From a virus, in IMG/VR virus record IMGVR_UViG_3300022707_000582, positions 1-35,353 of that record: DNA of 35,353 bases; one strand, written 5' to 3'. The notes beneath the pieces are model-generated. The model worked only from the letters and a program-made list of their open reading frames with translations. It had not been told where the DNA came from and made no database searches. Shown here one piece after another: positions 9,946-34,289 of the stretch; within the stretch, counting starts at the first letter, position 1, and the number at the start of each line of letters is the position of its first letter. The position numbers and the translations under genes were made by a program.

Positions 9946-11457
9946 TTATTTCTCCTCAATCAACTTCAACTGTTTCAACATCTCAATACCTTGCTCAAGC
10001 CTAGTACGTTTATCAGCAGCTTTCCCACTCTTATCAGATAACAATGTAATGATTTCATCTACGTCTGATTGTAAGTTAGATGGTGTAGGTTCCGACTCAG
10101 AGGTTTCCTCTGGGCGGTTGTTGTCAACGAGGCGGGAATAATCCACCTTAAAATAATCACATAACTTTTTAAATGTTAAAGGATCCTTAGGAGATTTAGT
10201 CATATAAGCTACAGAAAAACAAATTTCCATCCACTGGAAAGTGTCTATATCCATTTCCTTACTAGTATGTGACTTATACTTAATTCCTTTTTCAAACCAC
10301 ATAAACATATTATCTACGGCCTTTTGTAGAATTTCCTTACCTGTTTCTAATCTAGAATATTCCTTATATGCCTCCTTTTGTCCATATTTAATATGCTCTC
10401 TTAATTTCTTATCAAACTTCAGGTAGCCGTGATAATTATCTGATTGGTCACCTATACAAAATGCTTGCATTACCAGCCATTTTAATCCTGTCCCTTTAAC
10501 CTCTGTTGTTTTTGACTTTTGTACTAACTGTAACGTACCACAAGAAACAGAACTATCTTCTATAAGAGTGGCTTGTGGTTGCTTGAAACGACCTTCTGCA
10601 CGACCATAGTTTACCCATAATTTAGGGTTACCTGCTAGATCTTTATCTTCGCCAATGATCACGTGAGAATGAATTTCTGTCTTCTTATAAATCGCATGAG
10701 ACTTTGCCCCGTACCACTCAACAACATCGTCAGTCTCAAACAGGGGAGGTGCAACTTCTGAGGGATAATTATCAATAACCCATTGACGAGCTTCTTTTAA
10801 TAAGATAGGGCGTAGCGGACTCCGTTGTCCTTTATAAGCCTGTGGAAGCATAAGGCGGTCTCGAAAAACCTCCCCTGACCCGATACACATTAGGAAATTT
10901 TTAACCCCCCACTGAGCTTTCACTTCACGTACACGAGCTTCCATAATTTCAACAACATCTGTAATATCCTGATCAACCTTTTTCTTATCCTTGATGTTGT
11001 CGGTTTCTTTCTTAAACCTCTTTCCTGTGTTCTTATTTATGTACTTACTTTTAATCCTCTTCTTCTTTTCGATAGTAAAAGACTCTTTAGTCCACAGAGG
11101 GAGATCAGATATTTCTCTCTCAATGTTTTGCACACCAACCCACGAGTTTACTCCTACCTTTTTACCAACACCCCAGAACTCAGTTACATTTTTTGATTCG
11201 TGAGTTGTATCATCCTCTACGTTGGTGGCAACGAGATAGTCTTCTTCTACCATACTGGCAGCGCGGAACGGAACTCCATCGAAATCCCAGACAAACACAG
11301 TGTCGTCATTGGTTATTTTAGAGATATCTTTTACTTGAAGGTCCTTGAATAATTTATTATCTCTGTTATCTCGTGTCCACTCTTTAAAAGTGGTACCCTC
11401 TCCAAAATCATCTTTATCCCTACAATCACTCTCGTTCTCTATATTAAAACTACCCAC
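9946..11457 (-). CDS. 5'-3' exonuclease, FEN/PIN-like fold
   Basis: This long (503-residue) protein carries metal-binding patterns of the 5' nuclease family: VFVWDFDGVPFRAA (first Asp cluster), LMLPQAYKGQRSPLRP (helical arch, with the KGQR typical of phage 5' nucleases), ETDDVVE, VIIGEDKDLAGNP and FCIGDQSDNYHG. Such enzymes remove RNA primers and 5' flaps during replication. I start it at the GTG at 11457, which has AAGGAGA five bases upstream and begins just after the preceding stop; the ATG at 11499 lies inside that gene. It has an unusually long lysine-rich insert between the first motif and the arch (about residues 120-175). Confidence 0.8.
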   Translation of the reverse strand: MGSFNIENESDCRDKDDFGEGTTFKEWTRDNRDNKLFKDLQVKDISKITNDDTVFVWDFDGVPFRAASMVEEDYLVATNVEDDTTHESKNVTEFWGVGKKVGVNSWVGVQNIEREISDLPLWTKESFTIEKKKRIKSKYINKNTGKRFKKETDNIKDKKKVDQDITDVVEIMEARVREVKAQWGVKNFLMCIGSGEVFRDRLMLPQAYKGQRSPLRPILLKEARQWVIDNYPSEVAPPLFETDDVVEWYGAKSHAIYKKTEIHSHVIIGEDKDLAGNPKLWVNYGRAEGRFKQPQATLIEDSSVSCGTLQLVQKSKTTEVKGTGLKWLVMQAFCIGDQSDNYHGYLKFDKKLREHIKYGQKEAYKEYSRLETGKEILQKAVDNMFMWFEKGIKYKSHTSKEMDIDTFQWMEICFSVAYMTKSPKDPLTFKKLCDYFKVDYSRLVDNNRPEETSESEPTPSNLQSDVDEIITLLSDKSGKAADKRTRLEQGIEMLKQLKLIEEK

Positions 11458-19313: not shown

Positions 19314-20663
19314 ATGAAGCAAGATTTTATTTTAACAGAAGAGCAGCAGCGTCATTATGATCTAATAGCAGCAGGTGTTCACAACACAATAAATTGCTCC
19401 GTAGGTGGGTCGGGTAAGAGTGTCCTGATCAATAAACTTAAACGGGAATTTGGACACGAGACTCTATTTTTATCCACAACAGGAATCAGTGCATTGGCTA
19501 TTGGAGGGATGACGCTTCATAGTGGCATGAGTATTCCTATAGGGCATTGTACGAAAGAGGCACTTAAGAAGGTGTCATCAAAGACGAGTAAATTGTTTGC
19601 CAAGGGAGCTATTAAGCGCATCATTATAGATGAATTCTCGATGATTACTCCTAGTACTTGGTTTGGTTTCTGTGAACGGTTGAAGAGGTTTAACAAAGCT
19701 ACTAGAAATCGTAAATCTGGGGATATTAAAGTACATCTCTTCGGGGATATTCTTCAAATTCCTGCTGTGATGCTGCCACGAGATATAGCTTTGGCAAAAG
19801 AAGAGTATGGTACAAGTAAGTTTTATAGGATGAAAGAGTTTAGTGAGATGAACTTTAAGCTCGTAGAGTTCACCAAGGTAATGCGACAATCTGATGAACA
19901 GATGAAAAACATGTTACATGCTATACGTACTGCTGTACCTAAAAGCAGGGTTAACAACAAACCTGTATATGGAACAGAGGTTAATGAGGCAATCGAGTAC
20001 TTCAATCGTAAGGTTATCTATCCCTTGCCTAGAGAGACTACGGTAATAGCTGCCACAAATAAGTCTGTAGCTAAGTATAATGCAGTAGCTTTTAATAATA
20101 ACCATAATCCTTGCGGTATCTATACCTCAGAGTTGACAGGTAATTTCAAGATATCAGACTTGGTTTGTGGAGAGGAAGTTAGACTGAAGGTAGGATTAGG
20201 GGTGATTATCTTAAAAAACTCCTCTCATGATAGTCCTATTCCTTATAGTAATGGAGATACAGGAAAGATTATTGATATGGCAGAGGAGGGCGCTACTGTA
20301 CGTCTTGCCCGTACAGGAGAGGAAATACTAATAGAACCCTCTCGATGGGAAAAACACGGATATGAAACAAGAAAGAATGAGGAAGGGGAAGAAGAACTTT
20401 ATCAGTTTGTGTCAGGTTCAGCCACAGCAATGGCACTTAAACAAAATGCTGCCATATCATGCCATCGTAGTCAAGGGACTACATTGGACAAAGCTATTGT
20501 TGATCTAGGGTGGAGTTGTACTTTCGCAACTGGTATTTTATATGTGGCTCTTAGTCGGATGCGCTCAATTGGTGGCCTGTATTTGAAGCGTAAAATAAGA
20601 CCGGAAGATATCTTTGTAGATTTAGATGCGATAGCATGGTTAAAGGAGATGAGAGGTGACTAA
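19314..20663 (+). CDS. PIF1/RecD2-type SF1B DNA helicase
   Basis: This 449-residue protein carries helicase motifs in order: SVGGSGKSVLINKL (Walker A), STTGISALAIGGMTLHS (Ia), RIIIDEFSMI (Walker B, DEFSM as in PIF1), HLFGDILQIP (III), FTKVMRQSD (IV), then CHRSQGTTLDKAIVD (V) and YVALSR (VI). Such helicases unwind DNA 5' to 3' and, like T4 Dda, help start replication. The first Gly of Walker A is Ser (SVGGSGKS), a change usually tolerated. I use the ATG at 19314 because GGAGG lies five bases upstream; the frame opens at 19260 inside the previous gene. Confidence 0.85.
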   Translation: MKQDFILTEEQQRHYDLIAAGVHNTINCSVGGSGKSVLINKLKREFGHETLFLSTTGISALAIGGMTLHSGMSIPIGHCTKEALKKVSSKTSKLFAKGAIKRIIIDEFSMITPSTWFGFCERLKRFNKATRNRKSGDIKVHLFGDILQIPAVMLPRDIALAKEEYGTSKFYRMKEFSEMNFKLVEFTKVMRQSDEQMKNMLHAIRTAVPKSRVNNKPVYGTEVNEAIEYFNRKVIYPLPRETTVIAATNKSVAKYNAVAFNNNHNPCGIYTSELTGNFKISDLVCGEEVRLKVGLGVIILKNSSHDSPIPYSNGDTGKIIDMAEEGATVRLARTGEEILIEPSRWEKHGYETRKNEEGEEELYQFVSGSATAMALKQNAAISCHRSQGTTLDKAIVDLGWSCTFATGILYVALSRMRSIGGLYLKRKIRPEDIFVDLDAIAWLKEMRGD

Positions 20664-21129
20664 CCCATTGCAACCTAGTTTTAGTAATGAAAAATATAGG
20701 TTCCTTAGTAATTTTTGGAACTTTGAAATTCCCATGCCTTATGGAAGAAATACTGATCGTTTTGATACTTTATATTTTAAGACTTCAGAGGCTTTCTACA
20801 TGGCTATGAAAACAAGACACTATAATATAAGAAGAGATATCTCTCTTTGTGTTACCGGCGCTGAGGCTAAACGGATGGGAGGTTCTTTAGAATTACGGCA
20901 TGACTGGGAAGATATAAAATTTGATGTGATGTTGTATGCTTTACGCTATAAATTCTCAAAAGCTAATCCTACTCTTAGGCAAAAATTATTAGACACTAAA
21001 GATAGTTATCTTCAAGAAGCTAATTGGTGGCACGATAAAGTATGGGGAGTTTGTATGAAAACAGGAGAAGGGGAAAATCATCTAGGACGTCTGTTAATGC
21101 AAGTGAGAGAGGAGGTAAGGAATGAATGA
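20656..21129 (+). CDS. NADAR (YbiA/RibX-like) N-glycosidase domain protein
   Basis: In this 157-residue protein, RFLSNFWNFEIPM near the N-terminus, YFKTSEAFYMAMK, and EANWWHDKVWGVCMKTGEG near the C-terminus match the NADAR fold: 'LSNF', 'EH/EAxYQxxK' and 'D..WG...GxN...G'. Members cleave N-glycosidic bonds of riboflavin intermediates, and some remove ADP-ribose from DNA guanine. In a phage it may undo host ADP-ribosylation-based defence. The start is GTG at 20656 behind AAGGAGATGAGA, overlapping the helicase stop by eight bases. Confidence 0.75.
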   Translation: MTNPLQPSFSNEKYRFLSNFWNFEIPMPYGRNTDRFDTLYFKTSEAFYMAMKTRHYNIRRDISLCVTGAEAKRMGGSLELRHDWEDIKFDVMLYALRYKFSKANPTLRQKLLDTKDSYLQEANWWHDKVWGVCMKTGEGENHLGRLLMQVREEVRNE

Positions 21130-22619: not shown

Positions 22620-23174
22620 ATGAAAAAATTAATGTTAATCGCAGCACTATGTATTCTTGCTACGGGATGTAATGAGCCAAGAGCTAAAGTAATTCCAAAA
22701 TCAGACTCTGGGGTAAGTAAGGTAAGTGTCAAGGTAGTCGTTGGCGCGGATGGTAAGACAGTTGAACAACGAAATGTAGCTGAACGTGTAAAAAGAGATA
22801 ACAGTATAGGTAGTTATAAACATCTATATGTTATCAGTGCATACTCTGGTGATGTTATTATTTATTCAACAGTAAAAGGAAAAGTCACAAGTTCGGGTAA
22901 ACGACTAACACCTACATCCGTTGCTGCAACAAATGGGCAATATGTAGGAAAAGAACATTATGGCATGCTTACCAGTATCGGGGGTAAACGCAAGTATACT
23001 CCAGAAGTATTACAAGATGATGGGACTTATGGAAACTCAATACCATACATTTTCTGGTTTGATAGTAAAGGTGTATATCATCAGCATTATGTTACCGGAG
23101 GTCAGATCCTTCATGTGACAGACGCCCCAATGGTTGTTGGTAAGATTATTATTAATATGGAAATAACGGAATAA
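22620..23174 (+). CDS. Lipoprotein, 184 residues
   Basis: The N-terminus MKKLMLIAALCILATGCNEP is a signal peptide with a lipobox (LATGC) at residues 13-17. The mature part is beta-rich (HLYVISAYSGDVIIYSTVKG) and resembles phage proteins of unknown role annotated only as lipoproteins. With the membrane protein upstream it may affect the host envelope, for instance superinfection exclusion, but no evidence fixes this. RBS is AAGGAGAATAACT. Confidence 0.75.
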   Translation: MKKLMLIAALCILATGCNEPRAKVIPKSDSGVSKVSVKVVVGADGKTVEQRNVAERVKRDNSIGSYKHLYVISAYSGDVIIYSTVKGKVTSSGKRLTPTSVAATNGQYVGKEHYGMLTSIGGKRKYTPEVLQDDGTYGNSIPYIFWFDSKGVYHQHYVTGGQILHVTDAPMVVGKIIINMEITE

Positions 23175-23186
23175 GTAATATTTTGT

Positions 23187-23215
23187 TTGACTTATAAATA
23201 ATTAACTGCTATAGT
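23187..23215 (+). promoter_or_regulatory. Sigma70 promoter for the structured RNA/tRNA unit
   Basis: TTGACT (23187-23192), 17 bases, TATAGT (23210-23215), with TGC just before the -10 (extended -10). The expected start, about 23222, coincides with the first base of the stem that closes the RNA below. Confidence 0.8.
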
Positions 23216-23221
23216 TATTGT

Positions 23222-23378
23222 ATAGGGAAGGTCGAGGCCAAGTCCGGTAATGGGTGCGAGAGTGTACGGGTGGATAACCATGAAAGTGGGTGCAACGTAA
23301 GATACATCATTGCCTGTCAAAGTATATGTAAACCGTTAGACTCGTTCATGGTAGTGTTACCAGCCAACCTTTTCCTAT
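23222..23378 (+). ncRNA. Structured noncoding RNA, unclassified (RNase P-like segments)
   Basis: No open reading frame explains this stretch. The ends pair (23222-23232 with 23367-23378, 11 pairs with one bulge). Inside are an 8-bp perfect helix ACCATGAA/TTCATGGT (23277-23284 with 23345-23352), AACG/CGTT (23294-23297 with 23334-23337), TACAT/ATGTA (23303-23307 with 23326-23330), and a TGGTA/TACCA hairpin near the 3' end. Segments GAGGCCAAGTCCGG, TGAAAGTGGGTGCAACGTAAGA and GTAAACC resemble conserved blocks of bacterial RNase P RNA and appear in the same order, but the 3' conserved ACAGAA block is missing and the RNA is half the usual length. An alternative is a group I intron remnant (GGGTGCAACG also occurs in the terL intron). 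The tRNA starts nine bases later. Confidence 0.55.
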
Positions 23379-23386
23379 CCAGTAAC

Positions 23387-23460
23387 GCAGGTATCGTATA
23401 ACGGTAATACCTCAGATTTCCAATCTGATGATAGGGTTTCGACTACCCTTACCTGCTCCA
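23387..23460 (+). tRNA. tRNA-Gly (UCC)
   Basis: All elements can be read: acceptor GCAGGTA/TACCTGC, D stem GTAT/ATAC, anticodon stem TCAGA/TCTGA with loop TTTCCAA giving UCC, variable TGAT, T arm AGGGT-TTCGACT-ACCCT, discriminator T and an encoded CCA. It would read GGA (and GGN) glycine codons. Confidence 0.95.
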
Positions 23461-23555
23461 AACAACGCAGAGTATCGCTACCTTGCGTGTCAACCCATAG
23501 CGTCCCGTTGGGTATATCCCGGACAACCACTACTACTATAAAAAGGAATACGACT

Positions 23556-23840
23556 ATGAGTTTCACCCTAAAAATTGAGAAGAACAGAGAAGATTATATC
23601 AACATCACGGTAGACGAGGTTCAAGATGTTGATATCTTATCTCTATTCGGAAAAGCTGCCGTAGATAAGTTTAACGAGATGTCTCATAACGAAACGCAGG
23701 TAATGGAGACCACGCTATGTGCTGTAGTTCGTTGGCGGGATATGAATGGTGATTATATTGAAACGCCTATCCACAACAAAACCAATGTTTACGTTGTTAA
23801 CTCTGTAGGGGTTACAGTAAACACCTACAGAACACTCTAA
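23556..23840 (+). CDS. Hypothetical protein in the RNA/tRNA unit, 94 residues
   Basis: I start it at the ATG at 23556 with AAAAGGAATACGACT upstream; the longer frame from 23487 lacks a ribosome-binding site. The sequence (MSFTLKIEKNREDYINITVD...) is beta-rich with a helix (ILSLFGKAAVDKFNEM). It follows the tRNA by 95 bases and precedes a strong terminator. No family is recognised; its position makes it a candidate partner of the RNAs, though nothing in the sequence suggests RNA binding. Confidence 0.6.
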   Translation: MSFTLKIEKNREDYINITVDEVQDVDILSLFGKAAVDKFNEMSHNETQVMETTLCAVVRWRDMNGDYIETPIHNKTNVYVVNSVGVTVNTYRTL

Positions 23841-23864
23841 TACTGCCTGCTATTATTAAATAAC

Positions 23865-23934
23865 CAAGGCTAGTAGTCTGGTCAGAAATCAGATAATTAC
23901 TTTAATGCGGTATATGGTTCCGCACCTTGATCCA
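23865..23934 (+). other. tRNA-like three-way-junction fold
   Basis: CAAGG (23865-23869) pairs with CCTTG (23925-23929), followed by A and TCCA. Inside are a compound arm AGTA-TCTG / CAGA-TACT and a five-pair hairpin TGCGG/CCGCA with a nine-base loop. It resembles a tRNA with a 3' TCCA but lacks a normal T loop and a clear anticodon. It may be a decayed tRNA or a 3'-UTR structure protecting the transcript. Confidence 0.35.
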
Positions 23935-23960
23935 ATACACTACTATATATCTACTAAGGG

Positions 23961-23995
23961 CCTCGTTACTTTTATAGTAACGAGGTTTTCTTTTT
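23961..23995 (+). terminator. Intrinsic terminator closing the RNA/tRNA unit
   Basis: CCTCGTTAC (23961-23969) and GTAACGAGG (23977-23985) form a nine-pair perfect stem with a seven-base loop, followed by TTTTCTTTTT. Confidence 0.92.
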
Positions 23996-24068: not shown

Positions 24069-24260
24069 ATGCCATCATGTTCATGTGGTGTTTGGTTTAA
24101 ATACACCTCATACCCTAATAGTAAAAACGAAGACTCAAAGTTAGATTCATTATGCTCTGCATGTAAAAATGCATCCAACCCAGCTATAGGTTATTTAGCT
24201 TCACACGAATTTGTGCAAGGTTCTGCATCGAGCGATCCACTCCCCGATTATAGAGATTGA
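24069..24260 (+). CDS. Small Cys-rich protein, 63 residues
   Basis: MPSCSCGVWFKYTSYPNS at the start and LCSACKNASNP in the middle give two CxC/CxxC pairs that could form a zinc ribbon. The start follows AAAGGAATACAC. It has its own promoter and sits alone between two transcription units. Function unknown. Confidence 0.6.
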   Translation: MPSCSCGVWFKYTSYPNSKNEDSKLDSLCSACKNASNPAIGYLASHEFVQGSASSDPLPDYRD

Positions 24261-24851: not shown

Positions 24852-25379
24852 ATGAGCAAACTTAAGATTATATTTTTAGATATAGATGGTGTGTTAAATA
24901 ATTCATCTGATGCAGATCATTATGAAGTATCTACTGGAAGATTTGGACGTAGTACTGAGTTTTATTCGTTAAGATGTGTTGAGTTATTAAACACTCTTAT
25001 CAAAGAAACTGATGCTAAAGTTGTTGTATCAAGTACGTGGAGAATGGGCAAGAGCGATGAGGAGATGCAAGATATCCTTAATAGCATGGGTGTGGTCTGT
25101 ACTGTGATAGGATGTACCGATGTTACAAATTCTGCTTTTATCTTCAGAGGGAATGAGATTTTAAAATGGTTACAGGATCACGAAGATTTAGTTGGGCATC
25201 ATTTCTACTACAAGTCTTATGTGATCATAGATGATGACTCGGATATGCTTCTTTGGCAAAAGGATAATTATGTTAACACTGATCCTGAAGTTGGTATGAC
25301 GGAAAGGACGGTGTTTAAAGCTAAAGCTATTTTAAATAACACTATTTGTGAAGATATCGGACAAGAATATACAGATTAG
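24852..25379 (+). CDS. HAD-superfamily phosphatase (Swiss-army-knife RNA-repair type)
   Basis: This 175-residue protein starts KIIFLDIDGVLNN, the DxDG nucleophile motif, followed by VVVSSTWRMG (motif II Ser) and YVIIDDDSDM (motif IV acidic). The whole layout, with LRCVELLNTLIKET in between, is that of the HAD domain found in RNA-repair fusion proteins and in many phages. It may remove terminal phosphates from RNA or nucleotides. It interrupts the head block, so it is likely an acquired extra. Confidence 0.75.
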   Translation: MSKLKIIFLDIDGVLNNSSDADHYEVSTGRFGRSTEFYSLRCVELLNTLIKETDAKVVVSSTWRMGKSDEEMQDILNSMGVVCTVIGCTDVTNSAFIFRGNEILKWLQDHEDLVGHHFYYKSYVIIDDDSDMLLWQKDNYVNTDPEVGMTERTVFKAKAILNNTICEDIGQEYTD

Positions 25380-25760: not shown

Positions 25761-26555
25761 ATGTATTGCCATAAAGGTAAAGTAGCGTTCCCTGTACAAG
25801 AGAAGTGGAAAGACATACAGGGTCAAGCGGGCTATTATCAGGTAAGTAATTACGGTACTGTACAAAGTGTAACAAGAACTGTTGAATGGGTTACCAAGTG
25901 CGGTAAAAGTGGTTATAAGAATGTAGAAATGAGATATCTTAAGCCCAAAATAGACAAGGACGGTTATGAAGAATTCTGTTTGTGTCTTGAAGGTGAGAGG
26001 ACTTATCGTAGAGGTCATCGTTTAGTAGGAGAGGCTTTCGTAGACAATCCTGATAACCTTCCCGTGATAGATCATATAGATAACAGTAAAAGATATAACC
26101 TATTTATCAATTTGAGGTGGGTTACTAATACAGAAAATACTATAAATTATTATAAAGATTTCTATCAGGAAGGTAAGAATTTATCTTCTCTCACCAAAGA
26201 GGATTGGCAGGAGGTCTTAGATCTTCATCTACAAAATATTAGTTATAAAGATATAGCAACCCAAATGGGTTTGTCTATAAAAAGAGTAGATACTATAGGA
26301 GACGGGCTTTCTAGCAGAAGATTTTCTTCTATCACAGGGTTTACTAAAGATATGAGGAACCCTGTCAGTATTACATGTTTGAAATTAACAGATGACCAAG
26401 TAATTAAATTAATACATGACAGGGTTATAGAAAAGCTACCATTAAAAACATTAAGTTTAAAATACGGAGTTTCAGAATCTATGGTATCTCGTATGGCTAA
26501 TGGTAAGAAACGTCCCGAAGTATATAAGAAATTCAAGGAAAAGTATTATGAGTAA
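25761..26555 (+). CDS. HNH homing endonuclease (NUMOD4-HNH type)
   Basis: This 264-residue protein has an N-terminal NUMOD4 motif (WKDIQGQAGYYQVSNYGTVQ), an HNH core (RRGHRLVGEAFVDNP, IDHIDNSKRYNLFINLRWVT) and a C-terminal half with two helix-turn-helix-like repeats (SYKDIATQMGLSIKRVD; PLKTLSLKYGVSESMVSRMA). Such enzymes spread intron- or gene-linked DNA. It overlaps the terL start by eight bases and lies 85 bases before the intron, so it is likely the enzyme that mobilises that intron or this terL allele. Start at 25761 follows GGGAGATTTT. Confidence 0.85.
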   Translation: MYCHKGKVAFPVQEKWKDIQGQAGYYQVSNYGTVQSVTRTVEWVTKCGKSGYKNVEMRYLKPKIDKDGYEEFCLCLEGERTYRRGHRLVGEAFVDNPDNLPVIDHIDNSKRYNLFINLRWVTNTENTINYYKDFYQEGKNLSSLTKEDWQEVLDLHLQNISYKDIATQMGLSIKRVDTIGDGLSSRRFSSITGFTKDMRNPVSITCLKLTDDQVIKLIHDRVIEKLPLKTLSLKYGVSESMVSRMANGKKRPEVYKKFKEKYYE

Positions 26556-28346
26556 ACCCTTATTTGCCCCTGCCTCAAGAAAACAAGAAATGATGTTCAA
26601 GGCAGCAATGGAGGCGCAAATAGTCGTAATTGGTGGAGCTAAATAAATCCAGTGGTTCCACGTTAAATAACCCTGCTAATTCAGTGAAACTCCTAACGTA
26701 CAGACGAGGACAATACTGAGCCGAATGATTAAATTCATGGGTGCAACGATCAATCCTGATGAGTGTAAGGATGTAGGACTCAAGTGAGTTCGAAACGTAG
26801 GGCTATCGAAAGATAGAAGATATGATCTGATCTTTATGGAAACATAAAGAGGATTACCGGAAACGGGTAATCCGTAACAAAACAACTACCTGTGGCTGGC
26901 TCAGGTAAATCCTACCTTCTTCAATTAATGCCTCTTCTGTTTATAGATGACCCTAAAACAAACTGTATTATGTTCCGTAGGACAACACCCCAAATCACAG
27001 GACAAGGAGGTATCTGGGACACAGGGAAAGATATCTTTAATGCTCTACCCAAAGACCAAAGACCTCATATAAGAGAGAAAGCACTAGAAGCTGTATTTCC
27101 TACAAAAGACAAAGACACAGGAAAACTTAAATATAACGGAGCTAAAGTTAAGTACCAACACATGGAAAGGGTGGCGGATCGACTAAATATACAGGGCCTT
27201 CAATATACTTTCATAGGCGTAGATGAGGCATGTCAATTTGAGTGGGTCCAACTTGAGTATATGATGTCCCGCCTTCGTTCAGACTCAAAACATTTCTCCC
27301 GTATGGTTATGAGTTGTAATCCTGACCCAGACCACGAGTTACGTAAAATCATAGATTGGTACTTAGATGAGGAGGGATACCCCAACCCAGAAAAAGATGG
27401 GGTGGTTAGATACTTTATTAGGGAAGATGGTAATTTCTTATGGGGAGATTCAAAACAAGAACTTGCAGATAAATATGATATTCCCGAAGATAAATGGGTT
27501 GGTAAGATACTATCATTTTGTTTTGTAAGTGCAAATGTATACGATAATCCAATAATGCAAGAAAAGAATCCAGAATATGTTGCTTTTTTAGAAGGCCTGA
27601 ACGAGATAGACAAGGCGCAGCTACTCCACGGTAATTGGGATGCTCGCGCTAAAGGAGCAAACTATTGTGAGAGGTCTTGGTTTAAGGAAGTGGATAAAAT
27701 CCCTTCTGGCACTATCTTTGGTAGAGGATATGATTTAGCTGCTACTGAGGGAAGCCAAGTGAATAAAACTCCTGATGCCACAACTGGTGTTAAGATGCAT
27801 AAAGATAAAGATGGTTATTTTTATCTTGTGGGAGATTACTGTAAAGCTTTTGTGGATGAAGATACAGGAGTTTCTGGAAGAGTCTGTAAGCGTGTTGGAG
27901 ATAGAGATAATGTCATGACCAAACAAGCTGAACATGATGGCACTGATTGCATCATAGTGCTGCCAGTGGACCCAGCCGCTGCGGGGAAACAGGTCTACCA
28001 AGAGATGGCTAAGAAATTCTCTGGGCTTGGTTATCGTGTTAAGAAAGATCCGGTGCCAGGCAACAAAGCTAAGCTTACTAGATTCCTACCTTTTGCAGAT
28101 GCAGCTGAAAATGGTCTTATACGTATAGTTAAAAGCTCTTTTGATAAAACTACCTATGAGTGGATTATGAAGGAACTAGAATCTTTTGATGGGGAGAGAT
28201 CTACATCTCACCGCAAAGATGACTTCCCCGACTGTATTGCTACTATATACAATTACCTTTGTACAGCTAGGACGTACAAAGCCTTCAACATCCCCTCCCA
28301 TGGAGGGTCCACTCTACTCGCTTCTCATAAAATCCGCATACGGTAG
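26548..28346 (+). CDS. terL: Large terminase subunit, split by a group I intron
   Basis: The coding sequence is join(26548..26640, 26895..28346), 514 residues. Exon 1 ends IVVIGGA and exon 2 begins AGSGKSYLLQ, so the joined P-loop is GGAAGSGKS. Exon 2 contains the ATPase acid (TFIGVDEACQFEW), a motif III-like VMSCNPDP, and RNase H-like nuclease acids (GRGYDLAATEGS; IIVLPVDPAAAG; KDDFPDCIATIYNYL). It packages DNA into the prohead, with the portal gene downstream. Without splicing, translation stops after Lys-32 at TAA (26644-26646), so intron removal is essential. Confidence 0.93.
26641..26894 (+). ncRNA. Group I self-splicing intron inside terL
   Basis: The exon end GTGGAGCT pairs with GGTTCCAC (26654-26661) to form P1, with the U-G wobble at the 5' splice site. 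CCAGT (26649-26653) pairs with the first exon-2 bases GCTGG to form P10. The last intron base is G. Two GAAA-capped hairpins (26832-26849 and 26851-26873) fit P8/P9-type helices, and the core sequence ACTCCTAACG...GAGGACAATACTGAG is typical of group I introns. At 254 bases it is small and carries no internal gene; the endonuclease is upstream of the host gene. Confidence 0.92.
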
Positions 28347-33068: not shown

Positions 33069-34289
33069 TTGGAACGATATATAACAGAAAATTTTATAGG
33101 AAGTACTTTCCCAACACCAAAAGGAGGTGTGCTGACCATAGTGGGGATTAGTGGTAGAAAAATAGATAGTCATAAAGTGTACAGAATTTCATGTTCAATA
33201 TGCAGTAAAGATAAAGAGCTTTTCCCTGATTTATTTGAAAGCCTTAAGAGTAGTTTAGATAATGATCACATACCTTGTGGCTGTTCTCTATCTCCTAGGT
33301 GGTCTCGTCGGCAATATCTTATTAAGATAGCTCGTGAGTGTGATAAAAGAGAGACAGTAGATTTTAATGGATTTGCTTCAGCATGGGATAATGGTAAAAC
33401 AAAAATACATTTAAAATGTAAATCTGACGGACATGAATGGTCATATTCTGATATTAATAATTTCCTTGGAGGGAAGGTTTGTTCTGAGTGTCAGAGAACT
33501 GATAGTAACAAACCAGACCAAGAAATGATATATAGCTTCATGGCATCCGGTAAATTTCTGGATGGCACTACTTTTACACGTAATACTAAAATAAGATCGT
33601 CAAGAGGTAAATTATGCTACTGGGATGTAAGATGTCCTCGTTGCTCAGAGGATGAATATGTTGAAAATGGACTGTGCAATGGAGTATTTACCTGTTTTTC
33701 AGGGGACCTTGGTAAAGGTGTAATCTCTTATAGGTGTTCTAAGAGCTATCGTTGGAATAGTGGACAGAGAGAATATCAAATAAATGAGATAGGTAAAAAA
33801 GAAGGTATTTTATTTAAAGGATGGGTATCTGAAAAAGGGTATACTAAGGTAAGTTCACTATTTAAGTGGGAATGTAAAAATAAACATCCCTGCACATCTT
33901 CTGTGAGTAGTTTCATAAACAAAGGTAGAAGATGTAAAACCTGTGCAGCTAGTGGATTCAATCCTGGAAACTCCGCATACCTATACATAGTACGGTGGCG
34001 TAGGAATAATATTCCTTACTACTCTACTATCAAAACAGGAATAACTAACCGTGAAGTTTTAGTGAGGGTAGGAGAACAAAAGTTGGCTAGTAATAACATG
34101 GATTATGAAATGCTACACACCTTTCACTTTGACAAAGGCCAAGACGCCCTCGACATTGAGAATAAGATCAAAGCCGCCCTACAATGCAAGTCTTGTCCAA
34201 AGGAATTATTACCAGATGGTTGGACTGAAACTGTAGAAGATACCCCTGATAATTTACAATTAATACTTGACATTATCAATAACCATTGA
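33069..34289 (+). CDS. GIY-YIG-like endonuclease with zinc-ribbon repeats
   Basis: This 406-residue protein begins at a TTG (33069) behind AGGGGA. The first 300 residues hold several Cys pairs: SCSICSKD, CGCSLS, CSECQ, CPRCS, CKTCA, arranged as repeats with W/K-rich strands, like zinc-ribbon DNA-binding modules of phage selfish nucleases. The C-terminus (SAYLYIVRWRRNNIPY, then IKTGITNREVLVRV, and LDIENKIKAA) fits a GIY-YIG/T5orf172-like domain, with the usual GIY changed to LYI and YIG to TGI. It sits as a cassette with its own terminator and promoter between capsid and later head genes. Confidence 0.7.
   Translation: MERYITENFIGSTFPTPKGGVLTIVGISGRKIDSHKVYRISCSICSKDKELFPDLFESLKSSLDNDHIPCGCSLSPRWSRRQYLIKIARECDKRETVDFNGFASAWDNGKTKIHLKCKSDGHEWSYSDINNFLGGKVCSECQRTDSNKPDQEMIYSFMASGKFLDGTTFTRNTKIRSSRGKLCYWDVRCPRCSEDEYVENGLCNGVFTCFSGDLGKGVISYRCSKSYRWNSGQREYQINEIGKKEGILFKGWVSEKGYTKVSSLFKWECKNKHPCTSSVSSFINKGRRCKTCAASGFNPGNSAYLYIVRWRRNNIPYYSTIKTGITNREVLVRVGEQKLASNNMDYEMLHTFHFDKGQDALDIENKIKAALQCKSCPKELLPDGWTETVEDTPDNLQLILDIINNH

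What the first reader, a model, noticed from the sequence alone, without database searches (positions are those of the whole stretch)
23187..23995. Self-contained RNA/tRNA transcription unit in the phage genome
An 809-base unit has its own near-consensus promoter and a perfect terminator. Between them lie a structured RNA, tRNA-Gly(UCC), a 94-residue protein and a tRNA-like fold, in that order. No neighbouring gene shares it. Such a compact arrangement suggests a functional module (RNA processing, translation or defence against tRNA cleavage) rather than scattered genes. The order and structures are seen; the joint function is inferred.
Basis: partly seen in the sequence, partly recalled or inferred. 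Interest (0 to 1): 0.75.

Follow-up and report, generated by a model that had tools for sequence, protein, structure and literature searches.

The report
Phage tRNA unit with SroH-like RNA
A short phage transcription unit makes a glycine tRNA together with a conserved structured RNA whose core turns out to be shared, with its segments in a different order, by phage T4, several marine phages and the unexplained E. coli small RNA SroH, which suggests a widespread RNA part whose job is still unknown.

Summary
The unit is real: an extended -10 promoter (23187-23215), a ~165-nt 5' RNA, tRNA-Gly(UCC) with encoded CCA (23387-23460), a 94-codon ORF with a ribosome-binding site, and a strong terminator (23957-23989). 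The claimed 3' tRNA-like fold is not supported. The 5' RNA is genuine by comparison, though not by folding energy. Its inner 114 nt are 84% identical to an ORF-less array at the same place in another metagenomic phage (L003), better conserved than that phage's terminase (69-78%), with 7 compensatory pairs. Its first 30 nt match (E = 7.7e-8, window excluded from the model) a three-way-junction core found in T4-like phages upstream of vs.8, a Vequintavirus, Vibrio phage tRNA/ncRNA arrays and E. coli SroH. In the window, and probably in L003, this core appears circularly permuted, with a ~110-nt domain closing the other end. The locus lies between helicase and terminase, where Shewanella and Vibrio relatives have promoter-headed tRNA/ncRNA arrays and ICP1 makes its published most abundant transcript, a lncRNA of unknown function. 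Best reading: a compact phage tRNA/ncRNA operon whose 5' RNA is released from the tRNA precursor and acts as a stable RNA, perhaps on tRNA or translation.

The parts
23187..23215 (+). sigma-70-type promoter TTGACT-17-TATAGT with extended -10 (TGC)
   Evidence: equivalent TTGACA-type sites head the homologous arrays
23222..23386 (+). 5' structured RNA (start and end predicted: +1 about 7 nt after the -10; 3' end set by RNase P cleavage at the tRNA)
   Evidence: boundaries inferred
23228..23257 (+). SroH-like junction core: AAGGU-CGA-GG(CCAAGU)CC-GGUAA-UGG (strand b of P1, J1/2, P2, J2/1)
   Evidence: 39.8 bits, E 7.7e-8 with a model built without the window
23254..23363 (+). inserted domain closing the open end of the junction; aligned stretch 23238-23349 is 84% identical to L003 3941-4054; helices P3 23256-23260/23341-23345, P4 23262-23267/23322-23327, GAAA hairpin P5 23278-23289
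23364..23370 (+). strand a of P1 (CCAACCU), 3' of strand b, hence circularly permuted; pairs with AGGU 23229-23232 and UGG 23251-23253
   Evidence: chance of such a heptamer in the shuffled segment about 0.9%
23222..23228 (+). 5' strand of terminal stem extending P1b (partner 23372-23378, with a bulged U at 23371)
23371..23378 (+). 3' strand of terminal stem (partner 23222-23228)
23387..23460 (+). tRNA-Gly (anticodon UCC), CCA encoded
23543..23547 (+). ribosome-binding site AAGGA of the small ORF
   Evidence: read from sequence
23556..23840 (+). 94-aa ORF, no known relative; probably coding, unproven
23957..23989 (+). intrinsic terminator

Best explanation
The 809-bp stretch is a self-contained phage tRNA/non-coding-RNA operon, the compact local form of the promoter-headed tRNA/ncRNA array that relatives carry between helicase and terminase. 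One transcript runs from about 23222 to about 23990. RNase P cleavage at 23386/23387 frees a ~165-nt 5' RNA from tRNA-Gly(UCC), and the rest is the mRNA of a small protein. The tRNA supplies a GGA-reading tRNA (GGA is 31% of Gly codons in 18 window genes). The 5' RNA is a stable, trans-acting structured RNA, not a mere leader. It is built on a three-way junction (P1a-P1b, two-pair P2, conserved joins CRA and GGUAA) shared with E. coli SroH and several phages, here in circularly permuted order with an added domain. It most likely works on tRNA or translation. Shown: parts, conservation, core homology, synteny. Inferred: single transcript, processing, trans action, target.
For: Parts. Synteny: window helicase, NADAR, 24069, 24333, 24852, 25348 and terminase products have relatives flanking the equivalent region in ICP1 (helicase only), RYC, Shewanella 1/4 and 1/40, qdvp001 and L003 (annotation). 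ICP1's region is published as its most abundant transcript, ~800 nt, ORF-less (PMC7567579; PMC9040626). 5' RNA: the only non-coding match between window and L003, at 84% nt identity against 69-78% for terminase and 67% for portal; RNAalifold gives 7 pairs changed on both sides. Core: R2 model hit E 7.7e-8. Canonical motif covaries: 11 double-changed cells, 0/500 shuffles as high; P2 is C-G, U-A or G-C across phages and SroH. A phage-only model finds SroH (21.1 bits, E 7.8e-5) and T4 (70.2 bits). Motif near tRNA genes in RYC, 1.187.O, L032, L057.
Against: No expression data for this phage. The motif also occurs outside tRNA arrays: directly upstream of vs.8 in T4-likes, near lysis genes in a Vequintavirus, beside yjaZ in E. 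coli and P1-like phage-plasmids; a leader function is possible there. Only two sequences carry the inserted domain. No array besides the window and L003 shows the permuted order, and the window's own heptamer match has a ~1% chance level. Folding energy of the 5' RNA is unremarkable, and the comparative structure is not its MFE.
Confidence: 0.6

Rival explanations
1. The SroH-like core is a cis-regulatory leader (riboswitch or protein-binding site) that controls the downstream gene; in the window it would control the tRNA and the 94-aa ORF.
For: In T4-likes and VR7 the motif lies just upstream of vs.8. In L032 it is followed by a terminator and then an ORF. In L057 it precedes an ORF.
Against: SroH is an independent sRNA ending in its own terminator, with yjaZ convergent and no downstream gene. 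In RYC and 1.187.O the motif lies deep inside ORF-less arrays. In the window it is more than 290 nt and a tRNA away from the ORF. No shared downstream gene was found.
Confidence: 0.22
2. The 5' RNA is only a structured tRNA precursor leader that helps transcription or processing of tRNA-Gly and has no function after cleavage.
For: It ends 8 nt before the tRNA.
Against: The same domain in L003 is not next to a tRNA. Its conservation exceeds that of protein genes. The core occurs without tRNAs in SroH and T4-likes.
Confidence: 0.1
3. Counter-defence module: the tRNA and structured RNA replace or decoy tRNAs against host anticodon nucleases.
For: A tRNA gene plus an RNA-repair-type HAD domain (PF18143) 0.86 kb downstream; modules are shuffled between phages as accessory loci often are; tRNA-processing gene annotations in Shewanella phage 1/4.
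Against: No defence homologue was tested or found in the unit; the host is unknown; the 5' RNA has no anticodon arm or tRNA shape.
Confidence: 0.12
4. Chance assembly: unrelated promoter, tRNA, ORF and terminator, with a spurious RNA.
For: Promoter hits are not enriched overall; folding z is -0.69.
Against: Conservation, covariation, E-value and synteny.
Confidence: 0.02

Closest known systems
E. coli SroH small RNA (Rfam RF00372)
   Same: Same junction core AAGGU-CRA-GG(N6)CC-GGUAA-UGG; P2 G-C/G-C identical in type; found by a model made from phage sequences only
   Different: Canonical strand order with a longer P1b hairpin; no 110-nt insert; beside yjaZ, not tRNAs; full-family score in the window far below cut-off (12.7 of 80 bits)
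ICP1 abundant lncRNA locus (gp139-gp140) and related Vibrio/Shewanella phage arrays
   Same: Same genome position after the helicase; TTGACA-type promoter at its head; strong terminator at its end in ICP1 and RYC; ORF-less RNA modules, with tRNAs in several relatives
   Different: ICP1 has no tRNA, and its RNA shares no detected module with the window directly, only with L003's array (45 nt); the window's unit is shorter and contains an ORF
T4-like vs.8 upstream element (T4, VR7, Klebsiella Jiaodavirus)
   Same: Junction core; 24/28 identical to the window stretch in VR7; covariation supports one structure
   Different: Canonical order, capped by a UGUAAYA loop; directly upstream of a protein gene
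T4 species 1 and 2 stable RNAs (rnaC, rnaD)
   Same: Stable phage RNAs of unknown function made with tRNAs; position next to tRNA genes
   Different: No sequence similarity to the window RNA; no junction core in that record above noise
GOLLD and ROOL large phage RNAs
   Same: Large structured phage RNAs near tRNA islands, function unknown (PMC12286853)
   Different: No Rfam match in the window or relatives; much smaller unit

Membership tests
tRNA (RF00005) | cloverleaf scoring above gathering cut-off, with anticodon and CCA | tested here: met
   61.3 bits against cut-off 29; anticodon UCC; CCA encoded
tRNA (RF00005), for the 3' fold at 23855-23940 | score above gathering cut-off | tested here: not met
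   no match at E 5; relaxed ARAGORN background of 89 in the window
SroH (RF00372) | whole-family score of at least 80 bits | tested here: not met
   12.7 bits, 9.2 bits
SroH-like junction core (proposed here) | strand b: AGGU-CRA-P2-GGUAA-N-GG | tested here: met
   R2: 39.8 bits, E 7.7e-8, window not in the model
SroH-like junction core (proposed here) | strand a CC-N-ACCU pairing with AGGU and N-GG | tested here: met
   present 3' instead of 5' (permuted), N pair A-U, chance about 0.9%
SroH-like junction core (proposed here) | structure formed in solution | not testable with these tools
   needs chemical probing
ICP1-type phage lncRNA locus | position between helicase and terminase/lysis genes with own promoter and terminator | tested here: met
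ICP1-type phage lncRNA locus | shared RNA sequence modules with ICP1 | tested here: not met
   none between window and ICP1; L003 shares one 45-nt block with ICP1
ICP1-type phage lncRNA locus | abundant transcript in infection | not testable with these tools
   no RNA data for this phage
GOLLD / ROOL | Rfam match above cut-off | tested here: not met
T4 species 1/2 RNA | sequence similarity | tested here: not met
   no BLAST match to the T4 stretch
Interdigitated double T-loop (T-box, RNase P, L1 stalk) | two pentanucleotides of U/G-N-N-R-A type facing each other | tested here: inconclusive
   GUCRA and GGUAA fit by eye in window, SroH and the canonical phage motifs; noticed after the fact, consensus taken from memory, no 3D test

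The most novel reading that the evidence does not exclude
The junction core is a portable tRNA-elbow clamp: its two conserved joins, GUCRA and GGUAA, form an interdigitated double T-loop as in RNase P, T-boxes and the ribosomal L1 stalk. SroH and the phage RNAs would then be one family of tRNA-binding RNAs, moved between phages and bacteria as a building block and, in this window, circularly permuted around an extra domain.
Probability: 0.2. Interest if true: 0.88.

Novelty: new variant of a known kind. Interest (0 to 1): 0.66.

Why it matters
ICP1's most abundant transcript, the T4 region upstream of vs.8 and E. coli SroH have each been left without a clear function (SroH has one reported mRNA interaction, kbl, PMC6172242). 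A shared, covariation-supported core, testable in E. coli K-12 and T4, would tie part of these puzzles together and give a handle on what phage ncRNAs that travel with tRNA genes do. The circularly permuted copy would be an unusual natural example of an RNA core rewired while keeping its helices.

Tried and rejected
3' tRNA-like fold: no support. GOLLD/ROOL or any Rfam family: no match. T4 species 1/2 RNA homology: none; the T4 element found is a different one, upstream of vs.8. 94-aa protein: no Pfam, PHROG, tblastn or IMG/VR relative; AlphaFold from a single sequence was poor (pLDDT 50), so no fold search was made. Exact searches for the window's junction stretch found nothing and for the L003-type domain only L003 in IMG/VR. 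Exact search of the canonical motif in 84,980 prokaryote genomes gave 0 hits; SroH itself differs from that pattern, so this says little. Canonical (non-permuted) reading of the window core: the phage model R1 aligns a 5' strand only with a long gap and inside the promoter (14.1 bits, E 0.21), hence rejected in favour of permutation. A mixed alignment with SroH and a re-ordered window row was misaligned by MAFFT and was not used for counts. vs.8 is not a YjaZ homologue. Literature on the vs.8 upstream RNA: nothing found.

Full report
WHAT IS THERE. The window is a 35,353-base IMG/VR phage record, a fragment. Between the gene ending at 23174 and the gene starting at 24069 lie a promoter (23187-23215; 10 of 12 consensus matches, extended -10), tRNA-Gly(UCC) with encoded CCA (23387-23460), a 94-codon ORF with AAGGA upstream (23556-23840) and a strong intrinsic terminator (23957-23989). 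The ORF is longer than chance gives (0.6% of dinucleotide shuffles reach 94 aa), but it has no relative in Pfam, PHROGs, phage records or IMG/VR. The 3' 'tRNA-like fold' is not supported: the tRNA model does not match at E 5, ARAGORN at that laxness reports 89 tRNAs in the window, and the MFE fold is different.

THE 5' RNA IS REAL. Folding energy alone would not have shown it (z -0.69). Terminase relatives led to IMG/VR contig L003. Window 23238-23349 and L003 3941-4054 are 84% identical, the only non-coding match between the two; terminase is 69-78% and portal 67% identical at DNA level. RNAalifold on the two sequences gives 36 pairs, 7 changed on both sides, including the GAAA hairpin 23278-23289 and parts of the enclosing helix; helix 23262-23267/23322-23327 (P4) is kept through one-sided changes. 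In L003 the terminal stem has quite another sequence but pairs over about 17 bases.

THE LOCUS. tblastn places the unit in conserved surroundings: helicase, NADAR protein, small proteins 24069, 24333, 24852, 25348 and terminase have relatives on either side of the equivalent region in various members of the group L003, Shewanella phages 1/4 and 1/40, Vibrio phages RYC, 1.187.O and qdvp001, and ICP1 (helicase). There the region is 1-2.4 kb, largely without ORFs, often with tRNAs (Gly-UCC, Arg-UCU, Met-CAU recur). L003 and Shewanella 1/4 share about ten blocks at 81-97% identity, two of them in swapped order, so these arrays are mosaics of modules. A TTGACA-type promoter lies at or near the head of ten of the eleven regions scanned. 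For ICP1 this region is published as its most abundant transcript, ~800 nt, function unknown (PMC7567579; PMC9040626). L003's array and ICP1's share a 45-nt block (86.7%).

THE CORE. A stretch of the RYC array hit T4-like phages, and the same T4-like segment, which lies just upstream of vs.8, matches window 23228-23282 (75% over 57 nt in a Klebsiella phage; 24 of 28 in VR7). From IMG/VR and phage copies the motif reads CC-N-ACCU-(GUAAYA)-AGGU-CRA-[P2]-GGUAA-N'-GG. On 16 phage sequences 99.3% of cells pair; N.N' is A-U, U-A, U-G or C-G and the second P2 pair is C-G or U-A; 11 cells change on both sides, reached by 0 of 500 shuffles. A model of these phage sequences finds T4 itself (70.2 bits), a Vequintavirus (61.8) and E. 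coli SroH (21.1 bits, E 7.8e-5), the last not in the model. SroH reads CGCAACCU-GCGAUUAUCGCA-AGGU-CAA-GG(CAAAGU)CC-GGUAA-UGG, and P1-like phage-plasmids carry a copy in which P1b is ACCA/UGGU, a compensated change. Metagenomic phage L057 has the SroH-type P2 with the phage-type loop, with seven predicted tRNA genes farther along the same strand. A 30-position model of strand b, window excluded, hits the window at 23228-23257 with 39.8 bits, E 7.7e-8.

CIRCULAR PERMUTATION. In the canonical form strand a (CC-N-ACCU) lies 5' of strand b. In the window the bases 5' of strand b are the promoter and +1 region. Instead CCAACCU lies at 23364-23370, pairs with AGGU 23229-23232 and with UGG 23251-23253 (N.N' = A-U), and its helix continues into the terminal stem. 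Such a heptamer is expected in 0.9% of shuffles of the segment. The loop that caps P1b in T4 is thus opened, and the open end is closed by the ~110-nt domain shared with L003. L003 has the same topology by inspection (GUUUAUG/CAUAAAC flanking an AGUC/GACU P2 and GGUAA), though the R2 model does not detect it. The permutation rests on these two genomes.

HOW IT MAY WORK. Shown: parts, conservation, core, synteny. Inferred: one transcript; RNase P release of the 5' RNA, whose last paired base (23378) is 8 nt before the tRNA; trans action. The tRNA serves GGA, 31% of Gly codons in 18 window genes. A tRNA or translation role for the 5' RNA is suggested by company: tRNA genes in RYC, 1.187.O, L032 and L057, tRNA-enzyme annotations near the Shewanella 1/4 array, and an RNA-repair-type HAD protein 0.86 kb downstream here. 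The joins GUCRA and GGUAA both fit the T-loop pentanucleotide as I recall it. [quoted passage not shown] This is a hypothesis only.

COMPARISON. Not a member of Rfam SroH (12.7 of 80 bits), not GOLLD/ROOL, not T4 species 1/2 RNA. It works most like the tRNA-associated phage ncRNAs of ICP1 and T4 type; its core is of SroH type. I found no paper that links these (open-access library only).

Noticed in passing
window 26542-28346: The terminase gene is split inside its P-loop by a group I intron (26631-26849, Rfam 57.5 bits, above cut-off): exon 1 (MSKPLFAPASRKQEMMFKAAMEAQIVVIGGA) lies at about 26551-26640 and exon 2 begins near 26892. A NUMOD4-domain, homing-endonuclease-like gene lies upstream (25761-26555). 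L003, 1.187.O and qdvp001 have 2-3 group I introns in or beside the same gene.
   Followed up: partly
window 24852-25379: HAD domain of the 'Swiss Army Knife RNA repair' type (PF18143, E 3e-29), 53% identical to a Shewanella phage 1/4 protein annotated next to a peptidyl-tRNA hydrolase.
   Followed up: partly
window 20656-21129: NADAR-domain protein (PF08719, E 2.5e-26), possibly acting on ADP-ribose or NAD-related marks.
   Followed up: no
L003 3317-5601 and L004 6587-9026: Two phage arrays share about ten non-coding blocks at 81-97% identity, some in swapped order; tRNA-like folds are interspersed. An unexplored set of RNA modules.
   Followed up: partly
L006 7274-7308, L007 4960-4997 and 5488-5522, L008 about 9960-9996: A second short motif (AGGTGATACGCTACCTTAAGTGCGAACTTGAA and close variants) recurs in arrays of Vibrio and Serratia phages.
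   Followed up: no
L052 1501-2120; L055; L056: P1-like phage-plasmids carry an sroH plus yjaZ pair like that on the E. coli chromosome, so the pair may move as a unit.
   Followed up: partly
window 33069-34289: Protein with CapR homology domain repeats (PF21817, E 1.4e-41) just after the head genes.
   Followed up: no
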